Below, piece by piece: positions 17,389-43,401 of a stretch of 64,000 nt of DNA. Below the pieces are notes generated by a model. It was not told where the DNA came from. It searched no databases and saw only the letters and a program-made list of their open reading frames with translations. Position 1 is the stretch's first letter; each line of letters starts with the position of its first letter. Source of the stretch: Candidatus Desulfarcum epimagneticum. GTDB lineage: Bacteria > Desulfobacterota > Desulfobacteria > Desulfobacterales > CR-1. The stretch spans positions 1-64,000 of the forward strand of contig CAACVI010000023.1 of the NCBI GenBank assembly GCA_900659855.1. Direction: 5' to 3'. The position numbers and the translations under genes are program-made.

Positions 17389-17418
17389 TTGACAATATGC
17401 GCGGGGGGGGGGTATATA
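17389..17418 (+). promoter_or_regulatory. Predicted promoter of the magnetosome operon with a G10 spacer tract
   Basis: TTGACA (17389-17394) is followed after 18 bases by TATATA (17413-17418). The spacer contains ten consecutive G (17403-17412). The first gene of the operon starts 35 bases further on. A homopolymer at this place can change spacer length by slippage and so switch promoter strength. The rest of 17248-17388 shows no gene. Confidence 0.6.
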
Positions 17419-17453
17419 AAAAAAAATGGAAATTAAAATCGGGAGATGAAACC

Positions 17454-17774
17454 ATGGCCCAAAAAGCGATGATTAAGGACAACAAAGCGTTGTGCCGTCA
17501 CTGCGACACAAGAATGACGCTGTTGACAATGAATAAATTTTACGGCAAATGGCCCTGGGCGCTTCTCGGGCTGGGACTGCTGGCCTTTTTCTTCATTCAC
17601 TTTGGAGGCCCCATCATCGGGCTGCCCATGATCCTTCTGGGCGTTTATCTTGTCACGGCAAAGCACACCATCAGCATGTGTCCGGAATGCGGTTACTATT
17701 TTAAGGTATTAACCGCGAAAAGAAAAAAAACGGTAATATCGGTTAAGGAACCCCAAACAAACAACAGGAATTGA
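17454..17774 (+). CDS. Small membrane protein with zinc-ribbon-like Cys pairs, first gene of the magnetosome operon
   Basis: 106 aa starting MAQKAMIKDN after a GGGAG site. CRHCD (residues 15-19) and MCPECGYYF (about 78-86) flank a hydrophobic stretch of two membrane segments (WALLGLGLLAFFFIHF and IIGLPMILLGVYLV). The two Cys pairs could bring together one zinc or iron site at the membrane face. I do not know a named magnetosome protein like it. The stop lies one base before the actin gene, so it is in the operon. Confidence 0.65.
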   Translation: MAQKAMIKDNKALCRHCDTRMTLLTMNKFYGKWPWALLGLGLLAFFFIHFGGPIIGLPMILLGVYLVTAKHTISMCPECGYYFKVLTAKRKKTVISVKEPQTNNRN

Positions 17775-17775
17775 C

Positions 17776-18861
17776 ATGGATATTAAACCGTCTAAACAGG
17801 AATTGGCATGGATATCAGAACAACTGAAAACGATAAGAACCATGTTGTCAAATGATAAGAACCATATTATCGGGATTAATTTGGGCACATCATGGACCGT
17901 CGCAATGACCCGCAAAATGAAAGGCAGGTTCCGGTCCGTTGTCGGTTATCCAAAGGATATTTTGGCTAAAAGCGTGATAAAGGAAGATTATTTAATCGGG
18001 GAAAAGGCGTTGGAAAACGGGGGGGCGCTTTCATTGGTCTATCCGTTTAAACGAGGGGTGATTGACGCGGACGATTCCAAAAATTTTCACGCCGCCTCAG
18101 AAATTTTTTCTTATGCGGTGAGCGGCACCAATCCGGGACCGGACGCCCGGATTTGCTGCGTCATCGGCATGCCGCCCAATGCGCTGTCTGAAGACAAGGA
18201 CCGGGTTTTGGAAATCGCCAGGGAATCCTGCCATCACGCGGCTGTTGTTTCCCATCCTTTTTTGGTGGCGCTTGGAATGGACAGGCTGATCGATTCCATC
18301 ATCGTGGATATCGGCGCCGGGACCACGGATATCTGCGGGTTAAAAGGGGCGCTTCCCGGTCCTCAAGATGAAATCACCCTGTTAACGGCCGGGGAATCCA
18401 TTGACGCCGCCTTGGCGACGGCGATCAGGGACCGGTATCCGGGGGTCTCGCTGACCAAAAAATTAATCTGCGAAATCAAAGAAAAACACGCGTTTGTGGG
18501 GACGGCGCCCAAACCTGTCCTGGTGGAGTTGAGAAAAAGAGGAATTCCTGAAAAATATGACATCACATCTGAAATCAAATTGGCCTGTGAAAGTATTTTT
18601 CCCGATATTATAGACGGCATTGTGTCTGTTTTATCCACCTTTGACCTTGAAAAGCAGGACACGGTTCTTCAAAATATTTATCTTGCGGGCGGCGGGTCCG
18701 GGATCGCGGGAATCGAGACGTTTATTGAAAAAGGATTGGAAGATTACGGCGATGTAAGCGTCCATCGGATTAAAGATTCTGATTTTTGCGGATGCGAGGG
18801 GGCTTTGAAAATTTCCGATTCGGCATTTCTTGATGGAATGAAACTGGAATCGTTAAAATAA
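17776..18861 (+). CDS. mamK: MamK-like actin, copy 1
   Basis: 361 aa. The actin-fold motifs are phosphate-1 GINLGTSWTVA (about residues 34-44), phosphate-2 VDIGAGTTDI and adenosine LAGGGSGIAG. It matches MamK/MreB-type bacterial actins, which polymerise in the cytoplasm and align magnetosomes into chains. The N-terminus has about 30 extra residues before the fold. An AGGAAT site precedes the ATG. The next gene is a paralogue. In Desulfobacterota a second actin (Mad28) accompanies MamK, and which of these two corresponds to which cannot be decided by reading alone. Confidence 0.85.
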   Translation: MDIKPSKQELAWISEQLKTIRTMLSNDKNHIIGINLGTSWTVAMTRKMKGRFRSVVGYPKDILAKSVIKEDYLIGEKALENGGALSLVYPFKRGVIDADDSKNFHAASEIFSYAVSGTNPGPDARICCVIGMPPNALSEDKDRVLEIARESCHHAAVVSHPFLVALGMDRLIDSIIVDIGAGTTDICGLKGALPGPQDEITLLTAGESIDAALATAIRDRYPGVSLTKKLICEIKEKHAFVGTAPKPVLVELRKRGIPEKYDITSEIKLACESIFPDIIDGIVSVLSTFDLEKQDTVLQNIYLAGGGSGIAGIETFIEKGLEDYGDVSVHRIKDSDFCGCEGALKISDSAFLDGMKLESLK

Positions 18862-18878: not shown

Positions 18879-19961
18879 ATGAACGCAGATGAAAAAAAAC
18901 AGACGGGCAACCCGCAAAGCGACAACAGGCAAACCGGCGCTGGCGAGGCGTTTTTGGGGATAGACCTGGGAACATCGCGAACGGCTGTCGTATCAAGCGC
19001 CGGGGCCAGATTCATGTTCAGAACGCTGGTCGGCTTTCCCAAAGACATTATCGCCATGCGCCATGTTCAAAGCGAATATCTCATTGGCGAGGAGGCGCTT
19101 GAAAAAAAGACATCCCTGAATATGAGCAAGCCGCTTGAAAACGGCGTGATCAGAGAAGACCCGACAAAAGAGGACCTGAACGCCGTCAGGTTTATTCTTG
19201 AAAAAACCATCCGGGATTCAAAAACGGGGCCCAGGGTTAAGAAGCATGCCGTGATCGGCGTGCCCTCCGAGGTTTCCATAAAAAACATTGATATCCTGTT
19301 TGATATCTGCCGGGAGTTGTTTGACACGGCCCTGGTGGTTTCAGAGCCTTTTCTTGTGGCTTATTCCGAAAACCGGATTGTGGACGCCATTGTGGTGGAT
19401 ATCGGCGCGGGAACCACAGATATCTGTATTCTGCAAGGCGCCCTCCCCACAGCCAAAAGCCAGATCACATCAATGAAAGCCGGGGATTATATCGACAAAT
19501 CCCTGAAAGCCAGAATCCTGTCCAAACACCCCAATGTTCAAGCGACCCTGAACCAGGTCAGGCTCTTTAAGGAAAAACACGCCTTTGTGGGGAAAAGCTC
19601 CGGGCCCTGCAAAGTAAAAGTCAGGGAAAGAGGCAAACCGATTGAAATAGACATCGCTGAGGAGATCAAGGCGGAATGCGAGGATCTGGTTCCGGATATC
19701 GTGGAGCATATCGAGATGTTTATCAGGAAATTTGATCCTGAAAGACAGGAAGAAGTTTTAAAAAATATTTACCTTGCCGGCGGCGGCTCGCAGATCAAGG
19801 GATTGGACGCCATGGTTGAGGAGAAACTTCAAAGTTATGGCGACGTCAAGGCAACCTGCGTGAAAGATCCCGATTTTGCCGGCTGCCAGGGCGCGCTTAA
19901 AATCACCAGGGAAATTCCCTTAAAGGACTGGGAGAAAATCGGACCGGTATGTCAGAAATAA
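18879..19961 (+). CDS. MamK-like actin, copy 2
   Basis: 360 aa, 17 bases after copy 1 and clearly a paralogue: GIDLGTSRTAVV, VVDIGAGTTDICIL, KEKHAFVG and LAGGGSQIKG line up with the same blocks of copy 1. The two differ mainly in the N-terminal tail, which here is polar (ADEKKQTGNPQSDN). Good AGGAG site. Two filaments with separate dynamics, or a co-polymer, are both possible. This may be the Mad28-type actin. The last 35 bases are partly repeated just before the next gene. Confidence 0.85.
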   Translation: MNADEKKQTGNPQSDNRQTGAGEAFLGIDLGTSRTAVVSSAGARFMFRTLVGFPKDIIAMRHVQSEYLIGEEALEKKTSLNMSKPLENGVIREDPTKEDLNAVRFILEKTIRDSKTGPRVKKHAVIGVPSEVSIKNIDILFDICRELFDTALVVSEPFLVAYSENRIVDAIVVDIGAGTTDICILQGALPTAKSQITSMKAGDYIDKSLKARILSKHPNVQATLNQVRLFKEKHAFVGKSSGPCKVKVRERGKPIEIDIAEEIKAECEDLVPDIVEHIEMFIRKFDPERQEEVLKNIYLAGGGSQIKGLDAMVEEKLQSYGDVKATCVKDPDFAGCQGALKITREIPLKDWEKIGPVCQK

Positions 19962-20005: not shown

Positions 20006-21145
20006 ATGGCGGAATTATCACAAATAAAAGACAAACCTTATTTTTCCGGTGAAGATGTCATGGCGGACGACGCCGAGGCATATTCAGACGCGCCGGCGCG
20101 CCGGGTCCCCATTGACGCGGGAAGGTTGACCACAAACCTGATTCTGACGGTGGCGATATTTGTCGGATTGCCCGTTTTGTGGTTTTATTTTTCCACTTCT
20201 CCTGAAAATTTAAAGCGGCTTACTTTCTTAACCCTGCCGTTTTTCAACCTGGTCTATATTTTTCTCTTAAGCGCGGTCACATTAATTGTCAGTTCTTTTT
20301 TCCTGGTCCCTTTAAAACCGTTTTTAACCGGCCCGCTTTTTTTGCTGTCCCTTTTCTGCTCCTTTCCCCTCATCATCGGTCTTCAGCATCGTCTTGATTT
20401 TTCCCAGGTCGTGGCGGGCATAGAGTTTTTTAAAGACTGGCCTTTTTTCCTCCGCCCGGCCTGGATACTGTCTCATTTTCTGTTCCCCGCAGGGATCATT
20501 ATGTTTGTCTTTTTGTATGCCAGGGCGTTGTTTTCAAAAAAAAACGCTTACGTTTACCTGTTTTCCATTATCCTGGTGTCCGGCGCCGCCTTTTTGTCCA
20601 TGTCCTCCATTGTCCGGGCGGGGCAACCCAATCTGATCGCTTTGTTTCAGCCCGAAACCGCGCCGGCCCCGGGTAACATCCAGACGCCCCGGGATTTGGA
20701 TTTGGCCGACAATTTGGCCGGACATCCAGACGGGCTCTCAACATCGCGGACGGCGGCGCCCATGGCAATGGTTTCCGATGCCAGGGACAGCGCCCCCATG
20801 GATTTGAGCGGGGCGCTCCAACAGGAATCCCCGCCCCCTGGAATGATGGGGAATCTGGAAAATAAACTCAAAAGCCTGATCGGTTTGATTGATCAGAAAA
20901 TCTCTCAAATGGAAAATCAGGCCGGAAAGGAAAAGACCCGGCAGACCAAAGCCATCGCGGCGATGGAAACCCAGATTAAGATTGTCTCATCCCGCATGGA
21001 ATATATTTCCGCCAGGCTGGACGCCATGGAAACAAAATGGATGGAGTCCCGGGATCTTAATCTTAAAAACTCTCAAGTTCCGGAAATTGCGGGGGAAAAA
21101 CAAGCGCCCCGTGGCAAAGGAGGAAAAAATGAAAAAAAACATTAG
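20006..21145 (+). CDS. Multi-pass membrane protein with C-terminal coiled coil, magnetosome cluster
   Basis: 379 aa. About six membrane segments lie between residues 43 and 205. A Pro/Ala-rich linker follows (about 215-275), and then a coiled coil (NLENKLKSLIGLIDQKISQ, TQIKIVSSRMEYISARLDA) and a basic tail. Such a layout suits a magnetosome-membrane anchor that binds a cytoplasmic partner, plausibly the actins encoded just upstream. I cannot assign a mam or mad name. The start region repeats the end of the previous gene (AAATCGGACCGGTATG twice), and a ribosome site at normal distance is not obvious. Confidence 0.65.
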   Translation: MAELSQIKDKPYFSGEDVMADDAEAYSDAPARRVPIDAGRLTTNLILTVAIFVGLPVLWFYFSTSPENLKRLTFLTLPFFNLVYIFLLSAVTLIVSSFFLVPLKPFLTGPLFLLSLFCSFPLIIGLQHRLDFSQVVAGIEFFKDWPFFLRPAWILSHFLFPAGIIMFVFLYARALFSKKNAYVYLFSIILVSGAAFLSMSSIVRAGQPNLIALFQPETAPAPGNIQTPRDLDLADNLAGHPDGLSTSRTAAPMAMVSDARDSAPMDLSGALQQESPPPGMMGNLENKLKSLIGLIDQKISQMENQAGKEKTRQTKAIAAMETQIKIVSSRMEYISARLDAMETKWMESRDLNLKNSQVPEIAGEKQAPRGKGGKNEKKH

Positions 21146-21515
21146 GTATAACTTGGAGCACATGGGAGATTCTTTCGCGGGCCTGATTCAGGCTGTCATC
21201 ACTTCCGCGAGGGACAGCGCGGCCAATGTCGTGGACGCGATGGAAGTCTGGCAGATCAAAGGCAAGAAAAAGAAAAAAGTGATGGACATCGGGCGACATT
21301 CGGTTCGGTTGCGGCAGGACCGTCCGGACATGTTTGACGATGAAGAAATTCAGGTGGTGTTCAGGGAGTACGATGAGCTTCAGGACGCCATTGATCAATT
21401 CGTTGAAAAACGGGAAGAACGGGCTCAAAGAGCCCGGGAGCGGTGCGAAAGAGCCCGCTATGGAGCTTCCGGGGATGAGGCGGACGCGGACAACATGGAG
21501 CCGGCCATGACTTGA
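21129..21515 (+). CDS. Charged cytoplasmic protein, magnetosome cluster
   Basis: 128 aa. The ATG at 21129 lies inside the end of the previous gene and has an excellent AAAGGAGG site. The protein is highly charged, with a basic patch (KGKKKKKVMD), then an acidic helix (DEEIQVVFREYDELQDAID) and an Arg/Glu-rich coiled-coil tail. There is no membrane segment. I do not recognise the family. Translational coupling with the multi-pass protein suggests a complex. Confidence 0.6.
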   Translation: MKKNIRYNLEHMGDSFAGLIQAVITSARDSAANVVDAMEVWQIKGKKKKKVMDIGRHSVRLRQDRPDMFDDEEIQVVFREYDELQDAIDQFVEKREERAQRARERCERARYGASGDEADADNMEPAMT

Positions 21516-21537: not shown

Positions 21538-21705
21538 ATGAAAACATTGGGTTTGTTATTCACAGGCGTTTTTTTGGGCGCGGTGGCTTATGAAGTGGCG
21601 CAAAGAAGCTACCCTGGAAAAGTGGAGGAGATCAGAGATAAAATAGCGGAAATGGTGGATAAGTACAAGACCACAGGAACCGGGAATGAAGAGGCAAGAG
21701 AGTAA
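21538..21705 (+). CDS. Small single-span membrane protein
   Basis: 55 aa: MKTLGLLFTGVFLGAVAYEV forms a membrane segment, and a short amphipathic, charged helix follows (GKVEEIRDKIAEMVDKYK). A GAAAGGA site precedes the ATG. The downstream gene starts inside it (21686). The position between magnetosome genes suggests a small structural protein of the magnetosome membrane. Confidence 0.6.
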   Translation: MKTLGLLFTGVFLGAVAYEVAQRSYPGKVEEIRDKIAEMVDKYKTTGTGNEEARE

Positions 21706-22618
21706 TTTGCTGAAAAAACTTTATCGCGAGCCGGAATTTTATGAGGATTTTTTAAAAAAGTTCGGGGCAATCTCCCTGGTCCCGGACCCTGTCAGGACTG
21801 TGGCCTCCAGATTCGGCTCGGCGGCGTCAGAAACAGCGGGGACAGCCGCGGAGGCGGCCGCCACAGTTTTGGCGGTTTCGGGGTATGCCGGCGGCAAAGC
21901 CCTCGGCGATCTGTTTTCATGGGCGAAAGCGGAGCCCAGGCTGAGCCGGGATATCCTGATAAAAGCCCTGTTTGTTTCTCCCGCGTCGATCGCGGCGTTG
22001 CGCCTGGAAGTAAAAGCCCTGGCAAAGGATGTGGCGCGGCGCGCTCCAAATGAATCCGCTCTGACCCAGGCGTCCATGGTCGTTGCGAGACTCATTAAAA
22101 AGAGCATGATAAAAGCCGGGACTTTGGGGGGACTGGTGTCTGTTCCCGGGACCATTCCGGGAGTGGGCACGGTTGGAACCATCGGCCTGATGTTTTCCTC
22201 TGATTTTTTTTATCAGATCCGGACCCAGTTCTTATTGTGTCATGGCATCGCCATGGCCTACCAGGTTGAGTTGGAGGAAGAAAGGCTCCAGGCGGTTTTT
22301 TTGTCCCTCATGGGCGTTTCCTCCCAGGGCCGGGACGACCCTCAAGCAGCCGCCAGGGCGCTCAGGAAGGTCATTGATCAAACAGCGGACGTCTATCTGA
22401 CAATGGGGCTGAACAAGGCTTTTCGAGCATTTACCAGTAAAATCACGGTGAAAACAGCCCGACGTTTTTTCAGGATCCTTCCGTTGCTGGGCATCCCCTT
22501 CGGGGTCCTGGCCAATGTTGAATCCACTTCCAGTTTTGGAGAAAAAGCGGAGATGTATTTTAAAAGTGTGAGCATGAATGGTCAGGGGCCCTCAAAAAAG
22601 CATATCCAGGGGCCGTAA
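21686..22618 (+). CDS. EcsC-like protein, magnetosome cluster
   Basis: 310 aa. The middle (KSMIKAGTLGGLVSVPGTIP then GVGTVGTIGLMFSSDFFYQI) is typical of EcsC-family proteins: a Gly-rich amphipathic or hydrophobic segment, followed by a helical region with FLLCHGIAMAY and AARALRKVIDQ. EcsC proteins associate with membranes and their biochemical role is poorly known. The gene overlaps the 55-aa gene by 20 bases. It is the last gene before a dinucleotide-repeat tract that separates it from the next part of the operon. Confidence 0.65.
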   Translation: MKRQESNLLKKLYREPEFYEDFLKKFGAISLVPDPVRTVASRFGSAASETAGTAAEAAATVLAVSGYAGGKALGDLFSWAKAEPRLSRDILIKALFVSPASIAALRLEVKALAKDVARRAPNESALTQASMVVARLIKKSMIKAGTLGGLVSVPGTIPGVGTVGTIGLMFSSDFFYQIRTQFLLCHGIAMAYQVELEEERLQAVFLSLMGVSSQGRDDPQAAARALRKVIDQTADVYLTMGLNKAFRAFTSKITVKTARRFFRILPLLGIPFGVLANVESTSSFGEKAEMYFKSVSMNGQGPSKKHIQGP

Positions 22619-22651: not shown

Positions 22652-22702
<51 letters not shown>

Positions 22703-22743: not shown

Positions 22744-23421
22744 ATGATGACAGGGTCGTCAACAATGAATGAAAAACATGATGAAATTTTAGAAGCCATC
22801 TGGACATCCAATGAAAACAAAAAATTCACACTCGCGGATATTAAAAACAAATGCGAGGTTGAATTTTCCCAGGCGGATATTGATCAACTGGAAAAAGAGG
22901 GACTGATTGTCACCAGCGCCGATAAAATTTTGTTTTCATCCAAAGGCGAACAAAAGGCCAGACATATCATGCGGCGGCACAGGCTTGCGGAATCCCTGAC
23001 CTCCAGCATTTTAAAACTGAAAAACGCGGAGATGGAGAAAGTGGCGTGCAAGGTGGAGCATTATCTGCAGCCGGAAGTCGAGGAAGCCATTTGCACATTG
23101 CTGGGCCATCCTGAATTTTGCCCGGACGGCAAATCCATTCCCAGGGGAAAATGTTGCCGAAAAGGCCTGAGAGAGGTCAATAACGCCGTGGTCAGCCTGA
23201 CGGACCTTGAGCCCGGGGAAACAGGAAAAATCACGTATGTCAAACCGGGGAGCCACTCGAATTTGCACCAGTTGATTTCATTTGGCTTAAATCCCGGGAC
23301 CCTGGTGACCTTGCACCGGAAAAGCCCTGTCTTTTGCATTAAATTTGAAAACACAGAGCTTGCCATTGATGAAAATATCGCGAATAATATTTTTGTGTGG
23401 AAAATATCAAACAGCGCCTGA
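22744..23421 (+). CDS. DtxR/MntR-like protein with FeoA-type domain
   Basis: 225 aa from the ATG at 22744 (GGAGGT eight bases upstream; TTG at 22741 is an alternative). The N-terminal winged helix (FTLADIKNKCEVEFSQADID) and dimerisation region (MRRHRLAESLTSSIL, EVEEAICTLLGHPEFCPDG) follow the iron-dependent repressor plan. The C-terminal 70 residues (LTDLEPGETGKITYVKPG, FGLNPGTLVTL) form the SH3-like FeoA domain. An unusual CPDGKSIPRGKCC carries extra Cys. It could sense ferrous iron and control the cluster, or assist the FeoB-like transporter. It sits right after the dinucleotide tract. Confidence 0.75.
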   Translation: MMTGSSTMNEKHDEILEAIWTSNENKKFTLADIKNKCEVEFSQADIDQLEKEGLIVTSADKILFSSKGEQKARHIMRRHRLAESLTSSILKLKNAEMEKVACKVEHYLQPEVEEAICTLLGHPEFCPDGKSIPRGKCCRKGLREVNNAVVSLTDLEPGETGKITYVKPGSHSNLHQLISFGLNPGTLVTLHRKSPVFCIKFENTELAIDENIANNIFVWKISNSA

Positions 23422-23464: not shown

Positions 23465-23647
23465 ATGATATCAATTGTTTCAGGACTTTTTTTTATCGCG
23501 CTCGGGATCTGGGGCATTTTTGATGAATATTACTATGTGGCTGATTTTCTTAGAGGATTCGGCCCGGTGGCGCTGATGTTATGCGGCCTGGTGGCGGCGC
23601 TGGCTGGATTTATGCCGATTAAACCGGAGGAAGAAACGGATGTCTGA
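23465..23647 (+). CDS. mamI: MamI, small magnetosome membrane protein
   Basis: 60 aa with two membrane segments: GLFFIALGIWGIFDEYYYVA and FLRGFGPVALMLCGLVAALA. The spacing and the motifs G-x-W-G and FLRG..P match MamI, which is needed for magnetosome membrane formation or crystal initiation in known magnetotactic bacteria. A GAGGA site precedes the ATG. MamA overlaps its last 8 bases. A tandem-duplicated homologue lies 1.5 kb downstream. Confidence 0.75.
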   Translation: MISIVSGLFFIALGIWGIFDEYYYVADFLRGFGPVALMLCGLVAALAGFMPIKPEEETDV

Positions 23648-24416
23648 AAAAAAAGCAAAAGTAAAAGCAAAAGAAAAAGAGAAATCAAAAGACAAGAAAC
23701 AGACCGCTGAGGCGCGGAAAACCCAAAAACAAAAATTAAACGGAAAGAAAAAGGCGGACCAGACCCATGTTGAAAGCCCGGACCTTTCAACCGTTTTTTA
23801 TCTTCACGCCGCGTTGATGGTGGGCAAAAGAATTGTCAACGGCGTTCTGGATTTTTACAATGGCATATTCGGCATCGCGCCGACGGACAAAGCCAAAATT
23901 TATGAAAGCGTAAGCGCCCATTATTTCAGAAAAGGACTTCACCTTAAGGCCATCAATTCTTTAAGGGAATGGGCGCGTCTTGAGCCGGAAAACACCCGGG
24001 CTTTGTTTCAATTGGCCAGCGCCATGACCAAATCCGGGAAAATAAAGCCGGCCATTAATGTTTATTCTAAAATCCTTAAACTGGACCCCGGCAACATTGA
24101 CGCCCTGTATGCCAAAACCCGCCTTTTCTTTAAACGAAAAGAGTTTGACAAGGCCATGGAAAATGTGGACGAGCTTCAGAGGCGGGCGCCTGAGAACCCG
24201 GAGGCGCTATATTTGATCGCCATGACCTGCAGCCGTTGCGACAAGATAGATGAGGCCATTGAGGCGTTAAAAAAGGCCATTGAAATTAACGAGGACGAAA
24301 TCAAGTATCATCAAAATCTTGGTTTCTTATATGAGCGTGTTGGCAAAAACGATGAGGCGGCCAAATGTTTTTCCAGGGTGATGGAACTTGAAGATGAGGA
24401 ATATGAGGACGAATAG
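23640..24416 (+). CDS. mamA: MamA, TPR magnetosome protein
   Basis: 258 aa. A very basic, Lys-rich N-terminus (residues 1-45) and a hydrophobic segment near 52-75 precede about four to five TPR repeats, such as KIYESVSAHYFRKGLHLKAI, ALFQLASAMTKSGKIKPAIN and ALYLIAMTCSRCDKIDEAIE. MamA coats magnetosomes and recruits other proteins through its TPR surface. The acidic end (ELEDEEYEDE) is notable. The gene overlaps mamI. The basic tail, longer than in Magnetospirillum MamA, may bind membranes or acidic partners. Confidence 0.75.
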   Translation: MSEKKAKVKAKEKEKSKDKKQTAEARKTQKQKLNGKKKADQTHVESPDLSTVFYLHAALMVGKRIVNGVLDFYNGIFGIAPTDKAKIYESVSAHYFRKGLHLKAINSLREWARLEPENTRALFQLASAMTKSGKIKPAINVYSKILKLDPGNIDALYAKTRLFFKRKEFDKAMENVDELQRRAPENPEALYLIAMTCSRCDKIDEAIEALKKAIEINEDEIKYHQNLGFLYERVGKNDEAAKCFSRVMELEDEEYEDE

Positions 24417-25149: not shown

Positions 25150-25512
25150 ATGGAAAACAATGGAAAAAGGCCCAGGCATATTATCGGCGGGGTTGTCGTA
25201 TTCGCGGCGGGTTTATTCCTCGGATTAAACAATATGCTTTATGTGGTTGAGTTTATCAAGGGCGCGCTTCAGCCTGTTTTCATCATTATGGGTCTGACCG
25301 CGGCGGCCGCGATTTTTCTTAACAAAGAGAACTCCCTGAGATGGCTGAACGCAGTGATCGCCCTTGTGTTTTTGCCGTTGGGCGTTTACGGCGTGTATGA
25401 TGAATATTATGCCACCATGGATTTTATCAATGGTTTCCTGCCGATTTTACTGGTCGTCGTCGGCCTTGTGGCCCTGGCCCACGGCATCAAACAGATCGGG
25501 AAGGAAAGTTAA
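25150..25512 (+). CDS. Tandem-duplicated MamI-like protein
   Basis: 120 aa. Two MamI units follow one another: residues 11-57 (GGVVVFAAGLFLGLNNMLYV, EFIKGALQPVFIIMGL) and residues 67-115 (IALVFLPLGVYGVYDEYYAT, FINGFLPILLVVVGLVAL). The second unit is very close to the single MamI at 23465. Four membrane segments are predicted. Its role is presumably like MamI at the magnetosome membrane. A GAGGGA site precedes the ATG. Confidence 0.7.
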   Translation: MENNGKRPRHIIGGVVVFAAGLFLGLNNMLYVVEFIKGALQPVFIIMGLTAAAAIFLNKENSLRWLNAVIALVFLPLGVYGVYDEYYATMDFINGFLPILLVVVGLVALAHGIKQIGKES

Positions 25513-36171: not shown

Positions 36172-36440
36172 AAATTATATTTACAATTATTATCACGAGT
36201 ATCGTCGTTTTATTCGCCTTGCAGAATTTTGATCACGTGACCGTATATTTTTTCACGTCCAAACCGGTGAGTATCCGTCTGTTTTTCATCATTATCTTTT
36301 CGGGTGTCATCGGCTGGCTGACGCGGTATATCGTCGCGATTCAACGCGAGGAAGAATTCAAGAAAAGATTCAAAATGCTTCTGACTGAGTATAAGAGGCT
36401 GAAAGCGGGTTTGCCTGATGACAATGATGATGACTTTTAA
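36168..36440 (+). CDS. LapA-like (DUF1049) small membrane protein
   Basis: 90 aa from the ATG at 36168, overlapping the previous stop. Two membrane segments (MKIIFTIIITSIVVLFALQN and SIRLFFIIIFSGVIGWLTRY) with VTVYFFTSKPVSI between them are typical of LapA/YciS-type proteins. A charged cytoplasmic helix and a tail of Asp follow (LPDDNDDDF). LapA-like proteins act as membrane adaptors elsewhere in bacteria. The role in magnetosome formation is unknown. Confidence 0.65.
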   Translation: MKIIFTIIITSIVVLFALQNFDHVTVYFFTSKPVSIRLFFIIIFSGVIGWLTRYIVAIQREEEFKKRFKMLLTEYKRLKAGLPDDNDDDF

Positions 36441-36451: not shown

Positions 36452-37360
36452 ATGGAAATTGAAAAATGTCGGAATTGCCGTGGAAGAGTCGCCTGGGTCG
36501 GGATACTGGTGAACCTTCTTCTGGTCGTGACCAAGCTCGTGGTGGGGATCACAAGCGGCAGCAAGGCTTGCCTGGCCGACGCGCTGCATTCCACCTCTAA
36601 TATTATAACCGCTTCCGCCATCTGGGTCACCCAAAGGTTGACGAAAAAGAAAGCCGATCTTTCGTTTAACCATGGATATGGAAAAGCGGAGTTCCTGGCC
36701 GCGGGATTTGTCAGTTTTTTTATTTTGGCCGCCGCCATTCTGCTCATCAGCATTTCCATTAAACACCTGCTCCATGAGCCGGCGTCTCCGCCGAAATTGA
36801 CCGCGGTCCTCATCGCCATTATCTCCATTGTGACCAATGAGATGCTGTTTCGATACATGAGATGCGTGGGCTCCAAGTTTAAAAGCCAGACCATCCTTGC
36901 CAACGCATGGGCGAATCGGGCGGACAGTTTTTCTTCCATGGCCGTGATTGTCGGCGTGATCGGCTCCAGGCTCGGCATCCCCCACCTGGATCCGATTTGC
37001 GCGATGATTGTCGTGATCGTCATTGTCAAGATCAGCGCGAACATCCTGATGGATTCCATCAAAAGCCTGATGGATGTGTCGGTGAATGATGTTTATGGAG
37101 ATGAAATAGAAGAAGTCAGCAAAAAAGTGGGGGGCGTGCTGGATGTTTCCGAACTCAAGACCCGGCAGATCGGCTCCCATATCTGGGCGGAGATCAATAT
37201 TCATATTGAGCCCCTGTCCAAATTAAAAGACGGCCAGGCCATCGCCGATCGGGTCAAACAAAGGCTTTTAGATAAAATTCCGGATTTAGAGAATATTTTA
37301 ATTCATGTGCTGCCCAATGGTAGACAAAGGAAAATGGTTTCAGGGGAGGCCACAGTATGA
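36452..37360 (+). CDS. mamM: MamB/MamM-type cation diffusion facilitator, second copy
   Basis: 302 aa. The N-terminal CRNC, GYGKAEF and IVTNEMLFRYMRCVG match MamB/MamM proteins. The metal sites are degenerate: TM2 reads DALHSTSN (the second Asp is Asn) and TM5 reads ANRADSFSS (no His). IWAEINIHIEP in the C-terminal domain recalls the MamM C-terminus. In Magnetospirillum one of the pair transports iron and the other stabilises it. The site changes suggest this copy may be the structural partner. The mamM label is tentative and mamB is equally possible. Confidence 0.7.
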   Translation: MEIEKCRNCRGRVAWVGILVNLLLVVTKLVVGITSGSKACLADALHSTSNIITASAIWVTQRLTKKKADLSFNHGYGKAEFLAAGFVSFFILAAAILLISISIKHLLHEPASPPKLTAVLIAIISIVTNEMLFRYMRCVGSKFKSQTILANAWANRADSFSSMAVIVGVIGSRLGIPHLDPICAMIVVIVIVKISANILMDSIKSLMDVSVNDVYGDEIEEVSKKVGGVLDVSELKTRQIGSHIWAEINIHIEPLSKLKDGQAIADRVKQRLLDKIPDLENILIHVLPNGRQRKMVSGEATV

Positions 37361-37815
37361 AAAAAACCCATAACGAACACACCCTGGCGGCGGCTGAACT
37401 GGGGACCCAATGCGCCATCTGCCCGTTGAGGGGACTTTTCCCGGAGGTTTGCAAGCTTCACCGCGCGCAGATGATGAAAAAAAACGCCAGGGGCGCCCCT
37501 TTCGTAAAAAACGAATGGGTCTGCTGGGGGGCCAAAATCGTCACAGGAGCGGGAGTCGGCCTGGCCGGAGCCGTGGCGGGCATGGCTGTTGTGCCGGCGC
37601 TTGGGGTGAAAGCCCTGCTGGGGCATATGATCGCTTACCAGATCGCCGGCGCCGCTTCCGCCACAGGCGCCGGAGTGAATGTGGTGACGCATGCGAAAAA
37701 GAGGACGTGCGAAACAGACAGCGGAAAGCCACATCGCAGGATCGGCTTAAAAAGACAGTATACCCGATTGCCCTATACACTTTCCGAAAAAGGGAGAAAA
37801 AATAATGCCAGCTAA
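37357..37815 (+). CDS. Gly/Ala-rich membrane protein with Cys motif, magnetosome cluster
   Basis: 152 aa, overlapping the transporter stop by 4 bases. The N-terminus holds CAICPLRGLFPEVC, which could bind a cluster or zinc. A Gly/Ala-rich hydrophobic hairpin follows (VTGAGVGLAGAVAGMAVVPA, IAGAASATGAGVNVV), and then a basic tail. Gly/Ala hairpins of this style are found in MamC, MamD and Mad proteins that contact the magnetosome membrane or crystal. I cannot name it. Confidence 0.6.
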   Translation: MKKTHNEHTLAAAELGTQCAICPLRGLFPEVCKLHRAQMMKKNARGAPFVKNEWVCWGAKIVTGAGVGLAGAVAGMAVVPALGVKALLGHMIAYQIAGAASATGAGVNVVTHAKKRTCETDSGKPHRRIGLKRQYTRLPYTLSEKGRKNNAS

Positions 37816-38164
37816 AGTGAGTTCTTATCAAAAGACAAAGGCCGCTATCAGAAAGAAGAAAGCCCAGGAGTACATGATGGGAAAGGACCTTTTTGATGAT
37901 GATATCGAACAACTTTCTTCAAAACGGAATTTTGGCATAGTCGATGTGGCAAAGGTCGGCACCGGGGTCGTGATCGGGGGGGGGCTTGGCATTCTTTCCG
38001 GCGTGGCCGCCATCGCCATTTCCGCCAGCGCCGCGGAAATTATAATCGGGGGGGTTGTCACCAAGATCGCCGGCGTGGTCGGGGGAGCCGCCGGTCTGGG
38101 GTGGGGGCTTCATTCCGTTGAGAAGAACAATCGTGGAACCAGCGCGAAAAGGGGGGGGAAATGA
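37805..38164 (+). CDS. Gly-rich membrane protein, magnetosome cluster
   Basis: 119 aa, overlapping the previous gene. A charged N-terminal half (KAAIRKKKAQEYMMGKDLFD) is followed by a Gly/Ala/Ile-rich hydrophobic hairpin (GVVIGGGLGILSGVAAIAIS and IGGVVTKIAGVVGGAAGL). It is similar in style to the preceding gene and may be a divergent paralogue. Its DNA holds three homopolymer G tracts of nine, seven and eight bases, the last at the end of the gene, so it is a likely slippage hot spot. Confidence 0.6.
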   Translation: MPAKVSSYQKTKAAIRKKKAQEYMMGKDLFDDDIEQLSSKRNFGIVDVAKVGTGVVIGGGLGILSGVAAIAISASAAEIIIGGVVTKIAGVVGGAAGLGWGLHSVEKNNRGTSAKRGGK

Positions 38165-38178
38165 CGCAAGGAGGAAAT

Positions 38179-39753
38179 ATGGTTCTAAAAGGCATCGCTT
38201 CCGGTCTCAATGGCTGCGGGAAACTGCTTGTTTCCAGCTATGACTTAAGCGTCGGGGGATCCAAGGCCGTCTATGACACATTGAAAAACACATCCTGCGC
38301 CACGGTCAAACTGTTCAAAAAAGCGAATAAAACGGCGGAAAAGATTCAAGAAGAACAAGAGATCAGACGGATCCTCAAACAAGACCTGGAAGTCTATAGA
38401 AAGAAAACCGGGAAGATGGAGAGACGCCATGAAAAAGATTTTTCCCGGGTCATTGAAGAAATTGACAGCGCGATAAAAGAATGCGTGAAAAACATGGATT
38501 CCGAAGGATTTGAAGCTCTTGAGCCGGCAGTCCTGGATTTATTGGACCATGAGGTCGAGATTAAAATTCTTGCGGCCACTTACCTGGGCGAAACCAAACA
38601 GGCGCAGCTGGCGCCGATATTAATCGCCGCGTTGGGATTCAACATGCCCGGCTTAACCGATGCCATTATCAAGTCGATATACAGCATTGATAAAAAGAAA
38701 ATCGAGTCCCTGCTCAGCGATTTGCTGAAAAATCCCCATGCCCGGATCCGGTTGACCGCCATGAGCCATTTGGACCACATGCTGACCTGGAAGAAGGCGG
38801 TGAGATATCAGTTGGAACGGCTTGAGGACAAACATCCGGAGGTCCGGCTGCTGGCCGTTAAACTTCTCGACCTGAAAAATGTCCAGGGAATTAAATCTTA
38901 CCTTGAGCCGCTTCTTCAAGATGAATACGAAAACGTCCGAAAGGCGGTTGTCAAAACCCTGGCGAATGTCAATAATGCCGAAGTCCTTCCCATGCTTGTG
39001 GCATTGTTAAATGATAAAGTTGTTGATATTCGGAAAACAGCGTTAAAGGCCATTGAGTCCATTGTCGGAGAAGAAATTAAATTTGATATTTTCCTGACCG
39101 GTAAAAAACGCGCCAGGGCCGTTGAAGCCCTCAAGCTTCATCTCTTCACCGCCCCTGGGCCGGAGGAGGTTGAGACAGCGGAGGAGGAGGTCGAGCCGGA
39201 GCCGGAGCCTGTGGAGGAAGAGCCCCAAGCCGCGGAGCCGGAAGTCGAGCCCGAGCCGGATCCCGTGAAAGAAGAGCCCCCGGTCGCGGAGGCCGATCCG
39301 GAGCCCGAAACTGTGGAAGCAAAGGAGGAGGCCGAGCCCGAGACTGTGGCGGAAGAGCCCCAGGCCGCGGAGGAGGAAGTCGAGCCGGAGCCGGAGCCCG
39401 TGGCGGAAGAGCCCCCAATCGCGGAGCCCGAAACTGTGGAAGCAAAGGAGGAGCCCGCGCCGGAGGTTGAGACAGCGGATGAGGAAGTCGAGCCCGAGCC
39501 CGTGGCGGAAGAGCCCCAGGCCGCGGAGGCGGACGTTGAGCCGGAGCCGGAAAAAGTTGAGGAATTGGCGGAAGAAAAATCGAAATCGGACCCGGACCAG
39601 ACCGGATATGCCGGCATCGAGTTTACGGAAAAGAATTTGAGCGCGATGCTCAAGCCCCAATTGATCACGCTTTGCAAAGAGCTTGGAATCGACATTTCGT
39701 TCACAATGAAAAAGGCCTTGATTATCAAGGAAATTTTATCCCGTATGTCCTGA
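38179..39753 (+). CDS. HEAT-repeat protein with acidic Glu/Pro/Ala repeats, MamJ-like in style
   Basis: 524 aa from the ATG at 38179 behind AAGGAGG (ATG 38161 is the alternative). Residues 1-100 are helical and basic. About 110-320 contain HEAT-like repeats (NPHARIRLTAMSHLD, HPEVRLLAVKLLD, YENVRKAVVKTLA). About 325-480 is an acidic repeat region of the EVEPEPEPVAEEP type. The final 40 residues resemble a SAP or Rho-N fold (LKPQLITLCKELGIDISF). MamJ, which ties magnetosomes to MamK filaments, also has an acidic repeat domain. No direct homology is claimed. Confidence 0.65.
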   Translation: MVLKGIASGLNGCGKLLVSSYDLSVGGSKAVYDTLKNTSCATVKLFKKANKTAEKIQEEQEIRRILKQDLEVYRKKTGKMERRHEKDFSRVIEEIDSAIKECVKNMDSEGFEALEPAVLDLLDHEVEIKILAATYLGETKQAQLAPILIAALGFNMPGLTDAIIKSIYSIDKKKIESLLSDLLKNPHARIRLTAMSHLDHMLTWKKAVRYQLERLEDKHPEVRLLAVKLLDLKNVQGIKSYLEPLLQDEYENVRKAVVKTLANVNNAEVLPMLVALLNDKVVDIRKTALKAIESIVGEEIKFDIFLTGKKRARAVEALKLHLFTAPGPEEVETAEEEVEPEPEPVEEEPQAAEPEVEPEPDPVKEEPPVAEADPEPETVEAKEEAEPETVAEEPQAAEEEVEPEPEPVAEEPPIAEPETVEAKEEPAPEVETADEEVEPEPVAEEPQAAEADVEPEPEKVEELAEEKSKSDPDQTGYAGIEFTEKNLSAMLKPQLITLCKELGIDISFTMKKALIIKEILSRMS

Positions 39754-39765: not shown

Positions 39766-40179
39766 GTGTCCTACGAAATAAGCGATGATTGCATCGGTTG
39801 CGGCTTGTGCGCCAAAAATTGTCCGTCAAACGTGATCACCGGAGAAATCAAAGATTGTTTTGAAATTGATCCGATCATGTGCGAAGAGTGCGGTTTGTGT
39901 TTTGAGATATGCCCCAAAGGGGCCATCCTTGATCCCCGGGGCAATCGCCGCGAGACCCCGGCGAAAAAAATCGGAAAACTTCCAAAGGCCGCCATTGATG
40001 AAAAGCTTTGCGCCGGATGCCAGACCTGTCTTGTTAACTGTCCCCGGGAAGCCATCTCTTTCGTTGACCAGGGGATGTTAAAGCCGGGTTTTTGCCGGGT
40101 GGACGCCGATCTTTGCGTAAGTTGCGGAACCTGCGTCAAATACTGCATCACGTCCGCCGCGGCCATGGGGAAAGAATGA
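39766..40179 (+). CDS. Ferredoxin with four iron-sulfur motifs, magnetosome cluster
   Basis: 137 aa from a GTG at 39766. Four [4Fe-4S] motifs are visible: CIGCGLCAKNCP, CEECGLCFEICP, CAGCQTCLVNCP and CVSCGTCVKYC. It is a soluble polyferredoxin that probably passes electrons to the NapH-like membrane protein of the cluster. The gene overlaps the FeoB-like gene by 4 bases (ATGA), so the two are coupled. The last motif ends CITSAAAMGKE and lacks the usual Pro. Confidence 0.8.
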   Translation: MSYEISDDCIGCGLCAKNCPSNVITGEIKDCFEIDPIMCEECGLCFEICPKGAILDPRGNRRETPAKKIGKLPKAAIDEKLCAGCQTCLVNCPREAISFVDQGMLKPGFCRVDADLCVSCGTCVKYCITSAAAMGKE

Positions 40180-42119
40180 AAACCGATTTTGTGATTGTCG
40201 GGAATATGAATGTGGGGAAGTCAACGCTTTTCGGGCGTTTGACACAAAACAACGGCGGCGGTGTCAATATCCCCGGCACCACGCTTTCCGTTAAGCGCGG
40301 GAAAATAAAAGGGACGGATACCACCCTGTATGACACGCCCGGCATTCATTCCATTTTCTCCGCCAACGAAGATGAAAGGGCCTCCAGGGACATCCTTCTT
40401 CTGCCTGATGTCAGAGACAGGCTTCATGGCCTGGCGCTGGTCGCGGACGCGAAAAATTTAAAAAGATCCATCGCCATCGCGCTTCAATACGCCGAATATG
40501 GCCTGCCCATGGTCTTGAATGTCAACATGACCGATGAGTCCGCCTCCCGGGGCATTGATATCGACTATGCCGGGCTGTCCGGGATATTGGGCGCGCAAGT
40601 GTTTGAAACCATCGCCAATGAGGGCATCGGGGTTGAAAAACTCAAATCAGGGCTGAAAAAAGCCTCCCCCCTGGGCGTGCGGACCGGTTATCCTGATGAC
40701 ATTGAGGAATTCATTCTGCTGGTCGAGAAACTGATCACAACCCCGACACATATCTCAAAGCGCGCCATCGCGCTCTTACTGCTCACCCGGGACCGGGGCG
40801 TGGAATCCTATATCACAGGGATCAGCGGTGAGTCACAGTTAAGACAGTTAAAACAGCTCGCAAAAGAATACCGCGACCAGGCGCTATACTCCATCGATAT
40901 CGCTCTTGAGAATTTTTATTTCAAAGAAGCTGAAAAAATTGTAAACCAGGTTCAGACCACGGCCCCTCCGTCGAAAAACCCATTTATTCAGAACCTGGGG
41001 GACTGGTCCACCCGGTTTTCCACCGGAATACCCATCGCCCTGATGGTGGTGGTGGCCATGTATTATTTTGTGGGGTCATTCGCCGCCACATTCCTGGTGG
41101 ACAGCATCAACACGCATTTGTTTGAAAATATGCTGATCCCGGCGCTTGGGAAAATGGTGGATATCATCCCCATCCGGTTTCTAAGGGACATGATCATGGA
41201 TCCTGACTTCGGCGTTCTGCCCACCGGCGTTTTCCTGGCCCTGGGGCTGGTCCTGCCGGTGATTTTTTGTTTTTATATCGCCTTTGGCATTTTGGAGGAT
41301 TCCGGATACCTGCCCAGGATTTCAATCCTGCTGGATAAAATATTCAAAAAAATCGGGTTGAACGGGAAAGGGGTGATCCCTTTGGTCATGGGATTTTCCT
41401 GCATCACCATGTCTCTTTTAACCACACGGATGCTCAACAGCGAGAAGGAAAGAAATATCGCTTCGTTTCTGGTGTTTTTATGCATGCCCTGCGCCCCTTT
41501 GCTGGCGGTGATGCTCGTTATTCTGGACAAAATGCCGCTTCACGCCACCATCGCCGTATTTGGGACGATTTTTCTCCAGATACTGATCGCGGGCTATTTT
41601 GCCGATAAGATCCTGCCGGGCGCGCGGTCGTCCATGATCATGGAAATTCCCGCCATGCGGGCGCCCAGGCTGATGCCTGTCATCCAAATGGCGTCAAAAA
41701 AATCATATCATTTTATGAAGGAGGCGATTCCTGTTTTTGTTTTTGCCGCCATCGCGGTTTTTCTCTTCCAGAGAATGGGCGGCCTGGAAGTCCTTGAGAA
41801 CAGCCTGGGGCCGGCGATTGATAAGATTTTGGGCTTGCCGGAGAAGAGTATCCAGGTGTTTATCAAGACAATGATCCGAAGAGAAAGCGGCGCCGCTGAA
41901 CTCCAGCATCTTCGGGACTCGTACACCAACCTGCAGATGGTGGTCAATCTGGTGGTCATGACCCTCATCGCGCCATGCGTCAACGCCATTATTGTATTGT
42001 TCAAGGAACGCGGCATGCGCGCCGGGTCAGCCATCCTGATCACAGTCTCGCTGTACGCGGTCGTCATCGGCAGCGCCGTGAATTACGTCTGCCGCCTGTT
42101 GAACATCACCTTCGCCTGA
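40176..42119 (+). CDS. FeoB-like ferrous iron transporter, magnetosome cluster
   Basis: 647 aa. The N-terminal G-domain has VGNMNVGKSTL, DTPGIHS and NMTD in the FeoB order. The membrane part has FeoB Gate-like blocks (GILEDSGYLPRISILLDK, GVIPLVMGFSCITMSL, LVFLCMPCAPLLAVML). The first is a textbook FeoB motif. It should carry Fe(II) across the cytoplasmic or magnetosome membrane. Magnetotactic Desulfobacterota encode Mad-type FeoB paralogues in such clusters. It is the last gene of the plus-strand operon. Confidence 0.85.
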   Translation: MKTDFVIVGNMNVGKSTLFGRLTQNNGGGVNIPGTTLSVKRGKIKGTDTTLYDTPGIHSIFSANEDERASRDILLLPDVRDRLHGLALVADAKNLKRSIAIALQYAEYGLPMVLNVNMTDESASRGIDIDYAGLSGILGAQVFETIANEGIGVEKLKSGLKKASPLGVRTGYPDDIEEFILLVEKLITTPTHISKRAIALLLLTRDRGVESYITGISGESQLRQLKQLAKEYRDQALYSIDIALENFYFKEAEKIVNQVQTTAPPSKNPFIQNLGDWSTRFSTGIPIALMVVVAMYYFVGSFAATFLVDSINTHLFENMLIPALGKMVDIIPIRFLRDMIMDPDFGVLPTGVFLALGLVLPVIFCFYIAFGILEDSGYLPRISILLDKIFKKIGLNGKGVIPLVMGFSCITMSLLTTRMLNSEKERNIASFLVFLCMPCAPLLAVMLVILDKMPLHATIAVFGTIFLQILIAGYFADKILPGARSSMIMEIPAMRAPRLMPVIQMASKKSYHFMKEAIPVFVFAAIAVFLFQRMGGLEVLENSLGPAIDKILGLPEKSIQVFIKTMIRRESGAAELQHLRDSYTNLQMVVNLVVMTLIAPCVNAIIVLFKERGMRAGSAILITVSLYAVVIGSAVNYVCRLLNITFA

Positions 42120-42129
42120 AATATTTCCG

Positions 42130-43401
42130 TCACGGGGCGCCCGGAGCGTTTTCCACCGAGCGGGTGGGGACCGTCAGGAGGGGAAGCCGGCCCATGCGGT
42201 GGCGTCGTATGATCTCTTCGGCCGAAAGCCCCTCTTCGACGCCATATACATTCACCAGACTGTCTTTCAGCATATGAAAGGATATTTCGCCGATGCTGAA
42301 TGCAAACAGAAAGTCTATTTTATGCCGGACAATCATCCTGGCCGTCTTCACCCCTGCGTGCCGGGGCTCGTTAACATATTGATTGGGGTGGAATTCTTCA
42401 ATCTCCTGGTGATCGCCGCTTAGTCTCAGCACAAGAAAATAAGGCGCCCGGGCGAAATGGCTGTGAACGACCGAGGCCAGGCCGTCCATATTCCGGACGG
42501 GGATCGCCGCCCTGACAGTCTTTGTTCGGACCGGCTCCATATGGATAAAGACGGATTCGATATGCTCGTAATTTTTCGCGATGAAGCGCTCCACTTTATG
42601 GGAAAGCTCATGGGCCTTGTATAACGAGAGAGACGGCCGGGTGGCTATCACGCAGTCGATTATTTTAAACGGGCCCGACTTGCGGATTTTCACGTTGCCG
42701 ACCCCCTTGACCCCGTAGATTTGATTGACTTTTTTCTCAATTTCAGCCTGAAGACCGGGATCCAGGTTGGCGTCCATCAAAATTAAAAGAGATGTCCAGA
42801 TATTCTCAATCCCGAGTTTGAAAAGGAGCGCCGAGATGAGAATAATGACGGCGCCTTCCACATAGGGAATTCTTAAATAGGCCAGCAGTATGCCCGCCAG
42901 GACGGCCAGCGAGGTGAAAATATCCAGAAAGGCTTCCCGGGAATTGGCGACCAGGGATTGGGATCCAATGGCTTTTCCCACTTTCAGCTCCGCCCTGGAC
43001 ACAAAAAAAACAACGATGGAGGAAACCACGCTTGCGGCGACGGGCAAAATCGGAAAAGAGCCCGGGGGGACAAGAAAGAAAAGCTTCCGCCAGCCTTCCC
43101 GGAATATCTCAATGCCGGCCACTATTATGAGAGCGCCGACTATCAGGCAGGCCAATGTTTCCGCGCGGTATAACCCGTAGGGGAATTTCGCGGTCTTGCC
43201 CCTCGCGGCTATCCACAGGCCAAACCCGGAGGCGGCATGAGCCAGAAGGTCGGCGCCGCTGTGAAACGCGTCAGCCAATAAAATCGGCGAGCCAAAGAAA
43301 TAGCCGACCGCGCCTTTCATCACAGCCAGGACTAAATTCGCGAACGACGCGATAAAAGCGACCCGGCGGCCATGTCTCAAGTTTTTGATTTTTTTGTCCA
43401 T
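42130..43401 (-). CDS. CDF transporter with C-terminal NifX-like domain
   Basis: 423 aa. The CDF membrane part has an intact TM2 site (DAFHSGAD), PYGLYRAET in place of the HPYGH loop, and a TM5 segment NSREAFLD with Asp kept but His absent. A cytoplasmic CDF domain (about 205-290) is followed by a NifX/NifB-type domain of about 110 residues (VRAAIPVRNMDGLASVV, HSHFARAPYFLVL). This fusion is seen in CDF proteins of various anaerobes. It runs towards the magnetosome operon, with 10 bases between the stops. The ribosome site is AAGGGA. Confidence 0.75.
   Translation of the reverse strand: MDKKIKNLRHGRRVAFIASFANLVLAVMKGAVGYFFGSPILLADAFHSGADLLAHAASGFGLWIAARGKTAKFPYGLYRAETLACLIVGALIIVAGIEIFREGWRKLFFLVPPGSFPILPVAASVVSSIVVFFVSRAELKVGKAIGSQSLVANSREAFLDIFTSLAVLAGILLAYLRIPYVEGAVIILISALLFKLGIENIWTSLLILMDANLDPGLQAEIEKKVNQIYGVKGVGNVKIRKSGPFKIIDCVIATRPSLSLYKAHELSHKVERFIAKNYEHIESVFIHMEPVRTKTVRAAIPVRNMDGLASVVHSHFARAPYFLVLRLSGDHQEIEEFHPNQYVNEPRHAGVKTARMIVRHKIDFLFAFSIGEISFHMLKDSLVNVYGVEEGLSAEEIIRRHRMGRLPLLTVPTRSVENAPGAP

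What the first reader, a model, noticed from the sequence alone, without database searches (positions are those of the whole stretch)
17389..43401. Complete-looking magnetosome gene cluster in a sulfate reducer, 5 kb from dsrAB
About 26 genes run on one strand and encode two MamK-like actins, MamA, MamI, MamQ, MamB/M-type transporters, magnetochrome proteins, MamEO, MamO, a NapH-like protein and a FeoB-like transporter. Magnetosome clusters are known from Desulfobacterota. What stands out here is the domain make-up (NifX fusions, a tandem MamI, separated PDZ proteins) and the closeness to the dsr operon, with only IS21 and a dead regulator between. Whether the mineral is magnetite or greigite cannot be read from this.
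Basis: partly seen in the sequence, partly recalled or inferred. Interest (0 to 1): 0.85.

Follow-up and report, generated by a model that had tools for sequence, protein, structure and literature searches.

The report
Magnetite-type magnetosome cluster, horizontally shared
A sulfate-reducing bacterium carries an intact set of genes for building magnetic organelles; most of its oddities are normal for its group, but the whole set looks swapped with a distant class of bacteria, and its filament-forming genes are unusual: two actin copies, one probably inactive, with the usual helper genes missing.

Summary
In detail: 27 same-strand ORFs (17451-42119) form an intact mam-mad magnetosome gene cluster 5 kb from dsrAB in a 99.7% complete Desulfobacterales genome. 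The mineral type can be read: gene order and identity (MamB 55%, Mad2 67%) match the magnetite cluster of Desulfamplus BW-1, not its greigite cluster (MamB 35%, no mad1/mad2/mad6/mamL). NifX fusions, split MamE/PDZ proteins and the double MamI are standard for Desulfobacterota; 'MamO' is a MamE-type pseudoprotease; the dsr neighbourhood is unique to this genome and probably incidental. What is unusual: (1) the nearest cluster is in G389, a genome of another class. The concatenated MGC tree and 18 of 20 gene trees join the two, while RpoB rejects that pairing (AU 3e-9). Cross-class transfer is the best reading. (2) Both clusters use a tandem MamK pair outside the usual Desulfobacterota MamK clade. 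One copy lost the catalytic Glu143 (His here, Ala in G389). (3) The Mad25-position coiled coil is not found in either genome, nor Mad28 in the window's genome, although 15 of 17 other magnetotactic genomes have Mad28. Function of the actin pair is inferred only. Verdict: new variant of a known kind.

The parts
17451..17774 (+). g01, small membrane protein with zinc-ribbon-like Cys motifs; in relatives it sits between g24 and the ferredoxin
   Evidence: 37-52% in relatives
17776..18861 (+). g02, MamK-family actin without the catalytic Glu (SHPF in place of SEPF; GINLG in place of GIDLG)
   Evidence: NF040964 359 bits, below the 400 cut-off; residue aligned to E143 of AMB-1 MamK
18879..19961 (+). 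g03, MamK-family actin with intact ATPase motifs
   Evidence: NF040964 406 bits; PDB 5ljw E=1e-98; motif table
20006..21145 (+). g04, multi-TM protein with a C-terminal part that looks coiled-coil by eye; relatives near several MGCs
   Evidence: no Pfam family
21144..21515 (+). g05, small helical protein, homologous to the gene after mamK in other clusters
   Evidence: 44% G389, 24-27% others
21686..22618 (+). g06, EcsC-like protein
   Evidence: PF12787 1.3e-6, just under cut-off; homologues next to mamK in G389, G084, G287
22768..23421 (+). g07, DtxR-type iron-dependent regulator with FeoA domain
   Evidence: PF02742 1e-22, PF04023 2e-13; follows FeoB in relatives
23640..24416 (+). mamA (TPR)
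   Evidence: NF040959 192 bits, just under the 200 cut-off; MamA structure 4xi0 115 bits
24394..25137 (+). mad1 by position and content (two CXXCH)
   Evidence: (43-58% in relatives); absent from the G389 cluster
25150..25512 (+). mamI, double (two MamI hairpins)
   Evidence: NF040963 72 bits, two stretches; same layout in relatives
25525..26316 (+). mamQ (LemA)
   Evidence: PF04011 8e-31, NF040966 119 bits
26320..26820 (+). mad2 by position; strongly conserved membrane protein
   Evidence: 58-72% in all relatives
27010..27942 (+). mamB (CDF)
   Evidence: NF033616 best NCBIfam hit, 237 bits; 49-64% in magnetite-type clusters, 35-38% in greigite-type
27929..29440 (+). fmpB / mamP-like: 3 magnetochrome motifs + PDZ + NifX
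   Evidence: PF18509, PF13180, PF02579; CXXCH x3
29456..31306 (+). fmpA / mamE-Cter: 3 PDZ + C-terminal NifX-like domain
   Evidence: PF13180 6e-29; PF02579 1.6e-5, 25.5 bits under the 26.3 cut-off
31320..33152 (+). mamEO: trypsin domain with intact triad + 2 CXXCH + TauE
   Evidence: PF13365, PF01925; HVVD/DLALL/GNSGG
33190..34080 (+). mamE-Nter pseudoprotease (triad His to Gln, Ser to Asp)
   Evidence: PF13365; MamE 165 bits vs MamO 80; triad table
34260..34706 (+). g18, small membrane protein, CPxHG...CPxC motif
   Evidence: no Pfam family; homologues in relatives
34897..35769 (+). mad6 (NapH-like)
   Evidence: TIGR02163 family, 50-57% in relatives; absent from the G389 cluster
35773..36171 (+). 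g20, paralogue of g18 with CPTHG...CPIC motif
36168..36440 (+). mamL-like (LapA-like, small)
   Evidence: PF06305 weak; 41-58% in relatives
36452..37360 (+). mamM (CDF)
   Evidence: PF01545 + PF16916; NF033616/NF033615 250/247 bits
37357..37815 (+). g23, Gly-rich hairpin protein
   Evidence: 26-41% in relatives
37805..38164 (+). g24, Gly-rich hairpin protein
   Evidence: 44-68% in relatives
38161..39753 (+). HEAT-repeat protein, mad23-like, with Glu/Pro/Ala repeats at 39155-39564
   Evidence: PF13646; matches HEAT gene of the mad23-26 cluster in G155/G131/G084; repeats
39766..40179 (+). mad9 (four 4Fe-4S motifs)
   Evidence: PF00037 1e-22; 48-57% in relatives
40173..42119 (+). mad17-like FeoB
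   Evidence: PF02421, PF07670; 29-33% to relatives' FeoB
42130..43401 (-). flanking CDF transporter with C-terminal NifX domain; not magnetosome-specific
   Evidence: PF01545 + PF02579; in 8 of 242 genomes of the order
44449..47783 (-). complete IS21 element between the cluster and dsr
   Evidence: PF01695, rve/Mu C-terminal; 47-nt inverted repeats
48407..50881 (+). dsrA, dsrB
   Evidence: TIGR02064 628 bits, TIGR02066 499 bits

Best explanation
An intact, probably functional magnetite-type mam-mad magnetosome gene cluster of the Desulfobacterota kind. MamQ/I/L shape the magnetosome membrane; MamB/M and the FeoB-like protein bring in iron under a DtxR-FeoA regulator; magnetochrome and Fe-S proteins (Mad1, FmpB, MamEO, Mad6, Mad9) set the redox state; the MamEO protease and its inactive partner control maturation; actins and HEAT/TPR proteins place the organelles. 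These roles are inferred from known homologues. Shown here by sequence: magnetite-type orthology; common descent of this cluster with that of G389, a genome of another class, against the RpoB species tree, best explained by an old transfer of the whole cluster between classes; and a chain module with a tandem MamK pair, one copy without the catalytic Glu, without a detectable Mad25-position coiled coil or Mad28. Inferred: the intact MamK drives filament dynamics and the altered MamK acts as a stable or regulatory partner, in place of the Mad25/Mad28 network.
For: Domains and families. Same gene order in Desulfamplus BW-1 and many MAGs. Magnetite against greigite: BW-1 magnetite cluster MamB 55, MamA 39, MamQ 41, Mad2 67%; its greigite cluster MamB 35, MamA 24, MamQ 34%, no mad1/mad2/mad6/mamL match. 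Transfer: concatenated 11-protein tree joins window and G389 with 100/100, also under a site-mixture model; 18 of 20 single-gene trees have that split; RpoB identity 59% to G389 against 70-71% to G084/G131; RpoB rejects window+G389 (AU 3e-9); MGC data reject the species-tree grouping (AU 1e-7 and 8e-5); G389's class does not contain the Desulfobacterales magnetotactic genomes; G389's MGC contig has its own genome's tetranucleotide signature (0.97 against 0.83), the window cluster has its own genome's (0.95 against 0.84). Actins: E143 replaced by H in the window and A in G389, E kept in every other magnetosome MamK compared; all-MGC-actin monophyly rejected (AU 2e-5). Mad28 not found in G000, found in 15 of 17 others; Mad25-position coiled coil not found in G000 and G389, found in 10 of the other 11. 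Mutation of E143 or D161 abolishes ATPase activity and filament dynamics in actins; static filaments seen for MamK E143A (PMC5059902).
Against: No phenotype, expression or crystals are known for this organism. The mad1 and mad6 genes are missing from the G389 cluster, so the two are not identical; loss in G389 or regain here cannot be told apart. The altered actins and AMB-1 MamK sit on long branches, so their exact placement is unsure. Not finding Mad28 or Mad25 rests on homology search of one draft of 52 contigs. Several NCBIfam scores lie under curated cut-offs, so those assignments rest on orthology and synteny. Direction and date of the transfer are unresolved.
Confidence: 0.82

Rival explanations
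1. The cluster was inherited vertically within Desulfobacterales and only appears to join G389 because of fast evolution or long-branch attraction.
For: End branches are fairly long (0.47 and 0.43), and the backbone of the MGC tree outside the pair is weak.
Against: The pair holds at 100 under a site-mixture model, in 18 of 20 gene trees, and is supported by shared rare features (tandem actins with one altered copy, no Mad25-position gene found). Overall MGC identity is highest to G389, 55% over 3054 columns.
Confidence: 0.1
2. Two magnetite-type clusters existed in the common ancestor (ancient paralogy) and were lost differentially, so that only the window's lineage and G389 kept this type; no transfer.
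For: Cannot be excluded by topology alone; magnetite and greigite clusters do coexist in BW-1, G331 and G039.
Against: No genome examined carries both magnetite subtypes; it would need many independent losses.
Confidence: 0.1
3. The cluster is greigite-type or of mixed mineral type.
For: Sulfate reducer; some relatives of the order carry an additional greigite cluster.
Against: Low identity to three greigite clusters; mad1, mad2, mad6 and mamL have no match there; magnetochrome in FmpB and MamEO; pseudoprotease as in the other magnetite clusters and unlike the greigite ones; all magnetochrome matches of the own genome lie in this window.
Confidence: 0.05
4. The altered actin g02 is not specialised: it is simply decaying, or it still hydrolyses ATP with other residues.
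For: No selection analysis was done; g02 and its G389 counterpart are among the longest branches of the actin trees; AMB-1 also has a second MamK (MamK-like) that polymerises (PMC2818848).
Against: Full-length ORF kept in two classes, with the same catalytic residue lost by different substitutions; the other nucleotide-binding motifs are largely kept.
Confidence: 0.4

Closest known systems
Magnetite-type MGC of Desulfamplus magnetovallimortis BW-1 (NZ_LT828540) and of Desulfovibrio magneticus RS-1
   Same: Core order mamA-mad1-mamI-mamQ-mad2-mamB-fmpB-fmpA-mamEO-mamE-mad6-mamL-mamM-mad9 (tested against BW-1); NifX and TauE fusions (RS-1, PMC4287615)
   Different: Actin/HEAT/regulator block partly moved upstream of mamA; two divergent MamKs in tandem; no Mad28 or Mad25-position coiled coil found; FeoB only about 30% identical to relatives' FeoB
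MGC of 'Deltaproteobacteria bacterium MAG_22204_dsfv_001' (DUZU01000029, G389)
   Same: Closest overall; tandem actins with one altered copy, HEAT, EcsC and g04-g05 block; MamB 64%, Mad2 72%, MamEO 57%
   Different: Other class; lacks mad1 and mad6 in the cluster; keeps Mad28 elsewhere; block order differs (actin block follows g24)
MamK and MamK-like of Magnetospirillum magneticum AMB-1
   Same: Two MamK-family actins; window actins align end to end with 5ljw (298 and 333 bits)
   Different: In AMB-1 the second copy is outside the island (PMC2818848); here both are adjacent, 45% identical, and one lacks E143
MamE/MamO active protease and pseudoprotease pairs (PMC4794232)
   Same: Intact-triad MamEO next to a MamE-type pseudoprotease
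   Different: MamE-derived, as already described for Deltaproteobacteria; not MamO

Membership tests
Magnetosome gene cluster (core mamA, B, E, I, K, M, P, Q; PMC9840458) | All eight core genes present in one region | tested here: met
   P represented by the FmpB/MamP-like protein
Desulfobacterota magnetite-type MGC | mad1, mad2, mad6, mad9 and mamL in the mamAB-like operon, with conserved order | tested here: met
   orthologues and order in BW-1 and relatives; names by position and description in PMC9145555 and PMC9840458
Desulfobacterota magnetite-type MGC | Higher identity to magnetite than to greigite clusters of the same genome (BW-1) | tested here: met
   MamB 55 vs 35, MamA 39 vs 24, MamQ 41 vs 34%
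Desulfobacterota magnetite-type MGC | Second actin Mad28 (common, not core) | tested here: not met
   no hit in G000 at E<=1e-5; 15 of 17 other genomes hit
Desulfobacterota magnetite-type MGC | mad23-26 chain module (common, not core) | tested here: inconclusive
   HEAT/Mad23-like present; Mad25-position protein not found; Mad24 and Mad26 searched only in the window
Magnetite producer | Magnetite crystals in the cell | not testable with these tools
   needs TEM/EDX
Greigite-type MGC | Orthology to greigite mam genes | tested here: not met
   19-43% to three greigite clusters, lower than to magnetite clusters
MamK | NF040964 curated cut-off 400 bits (tested on g03) | tested here: met
   g03 scores 406 bits
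MamK | NF040964 curated cut-off 400 bits (tested on g02) | tested here: not met
   g02 scores 359 bits; it is still nearer to MamK than to any other actin family in that library
MamK | Catalytic Glu143 and phosphate-1 Asp (tested on g02) | tested here: not met
   g02 has His and Asn there; g03 keeps both
Mad28 | Ser in phosphate-2 motif (PMC10653835); PF25216-type protein | tested here: not met
   both window actins have DIGAG and are MamK family; PF25216 Mad28s found in BW-1, G131, G084
MamO | Member of the alphaproteobacterial MamO clade | tested here: not met
   both trypsin proteins score higher as MamE than MamO

The most novel reading that the evidence does not exclude
A transferable magnetosome cluster subtype in which chain organisation is run by an active/inactive MamK pair, recruited from outside the Desulfobacterota MamK lineage, instead of the Mad25/Mad28 coiled-coil and actin network.
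Probability: 0.35. Interest if true: 0.75.

Novelty: new variant of a known kind. Interest (0 to 1): 0.55.

Why it matters
MGC spread between major lineages is held to be mainly vertical (PMC7602337). Here a whole cluster disagrees with the species tree across classes, with statistical support. The cluster is also a natural test of which chain-organising parts are dispensable: it seems to do without Mad28 and the Mad25-position protein and has a second MamK predicted to be catalytically impaired, mirroring the active/inactive protease pairing already known in magnetosomes.

Tried and rejected
Read the two actins as MamK + Mad28: rejected, both are MamK family. Read the cluster as greigite-type: rejected. 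Functional link to dsr: no support, dsrA is on another contig than the MGC in the other genomes. CDF-NifX as a new magnetosome gene: found also in four genomes of the order without a listed magnetochrome match, so not specific. Suspected that G389's MGC contig was misbinned: its signature fits its bin. Thought the MamK hits in G389's class were all magnetotactic: nearly all that were fetched lie in ordinary chromosomal contexts. Abreu 2014 on MamK-like not held. No direct repeats or tRNA mark island borders. Structure prediction was not run: it would not decide the open questions.
Full report
Check of the observation. The window is the first 64 kb of a 366,650-base contig of a 3.26 Mb genome, 99.7% complete. 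ORFs and domains confirm the cluster: 27 same-strand ORFs between 17451 and 42119, tightly packed, none broken. The CDF-NifX gene at 42130-43401 is on the other strand. dsrA and dsrB follow at 48407, separated by a NifX-like remnant and a complete IS21 with 47-nt inverted repeats.

Known kind. A magnetochrome search of 389 genomes of the order found 16 with a match, 13 over the curated cut-off. Fetched neighbourhoods, and a named-genome scan with a Mad2 alignment, show the same order mamA-mad1-mamI-mamQ-mad2-mamB-fmpB-fmpA-mamEO-mamE-mad6-mamL-mamM in many of them, including cultured Desulfamplus magnetovallimortis BW-1. The second trypsin protein has lost His and Ser of the triad in every magnetite-type cluster where it was aligned (the G394 hit there is its MamEO), but not in three greigite clusters; pairing of active and inactive MamE copies in Deltaproteobacteria is already described (PMC4794232).

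Mineral. BW-1 carries both types side by side. Its magnetite cluster is 38-67% identical to the window's core proteins and syntenic; its greigite cluster reaches 24-43%, in another order, without matches to mad1, mad2, mad6 or mamL. The window is therefore magnetite-type by orthology; crystals were not seen.

History. The closest cluster is on DUZU01000029 (G389). It has the same block including tandem actins, g04, g05, EcsC and HEAT genes, in a different block order: the window has [ZnR-actins-g04-g05-EcsC]-DtxR-[mamA...g24]-[HEAT-Fd-FeoB], G389 has [mamA...g24]-[ZnR-actins-g04-g05-EcsC]-[HEAT-Fd-FeoB]-DtxR. The concatenated tree joins the two with full support, as do 18 of 20 gene trees. RpoB places the window inside the Desulfobacterales set (96/95) and rejects the pair; the MGC data reject the species grouping. 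G389's class of 258 genomes does not list the Desulfobacterales magnetotactic genomes although their MamKs would pass the threshold. Both clusters carry the signature of their own genome, so misbinning is unlikely and the event is not recent. Ancient paralogy with differential loss remains possible but costly.

Chain module. Both window actins are MamK family. g03 keeps the ATPase motifs; g02 has His in place of Glu143 (AMB-1 numbering) and Asn in place of the phosphate-1 Asp; the G389 counterpart has Ala at 143. All other magnetosome MamKs compared keep the Glu. E143 or D161 mutation abolishes ATPase and dynamics in actins (PMC5059902). The four actins lie outside the Desulfobacterota MamK clade (AU 2e-5); their closest kin are unresolved between AMB-1 MamK and a family of chromosomal MamK-like actins in G389's class, found mostly without magnetosome genes nearby and sometimes in tandem. 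Mad28, recognised as PF25216 proteins with the published Ser signature, was not found in G000 but was in 15 of 17 others. The Mad25-position coiled coil was not found in G000 and G389. Names of mad genes here rest on position and description, since no annotated reference MGC was available to the tools.

Mechanism. Organelle building and magnetite formation are inferred from homologues with tested functions. The proposal that an active/inactive MamK pair replaces the Mad25/Mad28 network is inference, about 35% likely. The dsr neighbourhood seems incidental.

Novelty. New variant of a known kind: the biomineralisation core is ordinary; the cross-class history and the chain module are not.

Noticed in passing
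window 42130-43965: CDF transporter with C-terminal NifX next to a broken NifX-like gene. The full gene occurs in 8 of 242 genomes of the order; 4 of the 8 (G000, G039, G131, G192) carry a magnetosome cluster.
   Followed up: partly
window 22671-22704: A (TA)n tract just upstream of the DtxR-FeoA regulator gene; a possible length-variable switch.
   Followed up: no
window 2982-8104: IS481-like and IS4 transposase genes, with a low-GC stretch (about 38%) upstream of the cluster.
   Followed up: no
L265, L267, L268, L270, L272, L274, L279: Chromosomal MamK-like actins in G389's class, without magnetosome genes nearby, some next to hemL/atp/rimO-like genes and beside a membrane coiled-coil gene; in G636, G580 and G582 as actin-coiled coil-actin triplets, the second copy altered in G580 and G582.
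   Followed up: partly
L225/L239 (G287:C361): Two Mad28 copies about 1 kb apart in one genome.
   Followed up: no
L039/L202 (G131:C13, from about 57200): The mamEO-like gene of G131 lies about 14 kb away from its main cluster, near CDF-NifX.
   Followed up: no
window 39155-39564: Glu/Pro/Ala-rich repeats in the HEAT protein; likely length-variable.
   Followed up: no
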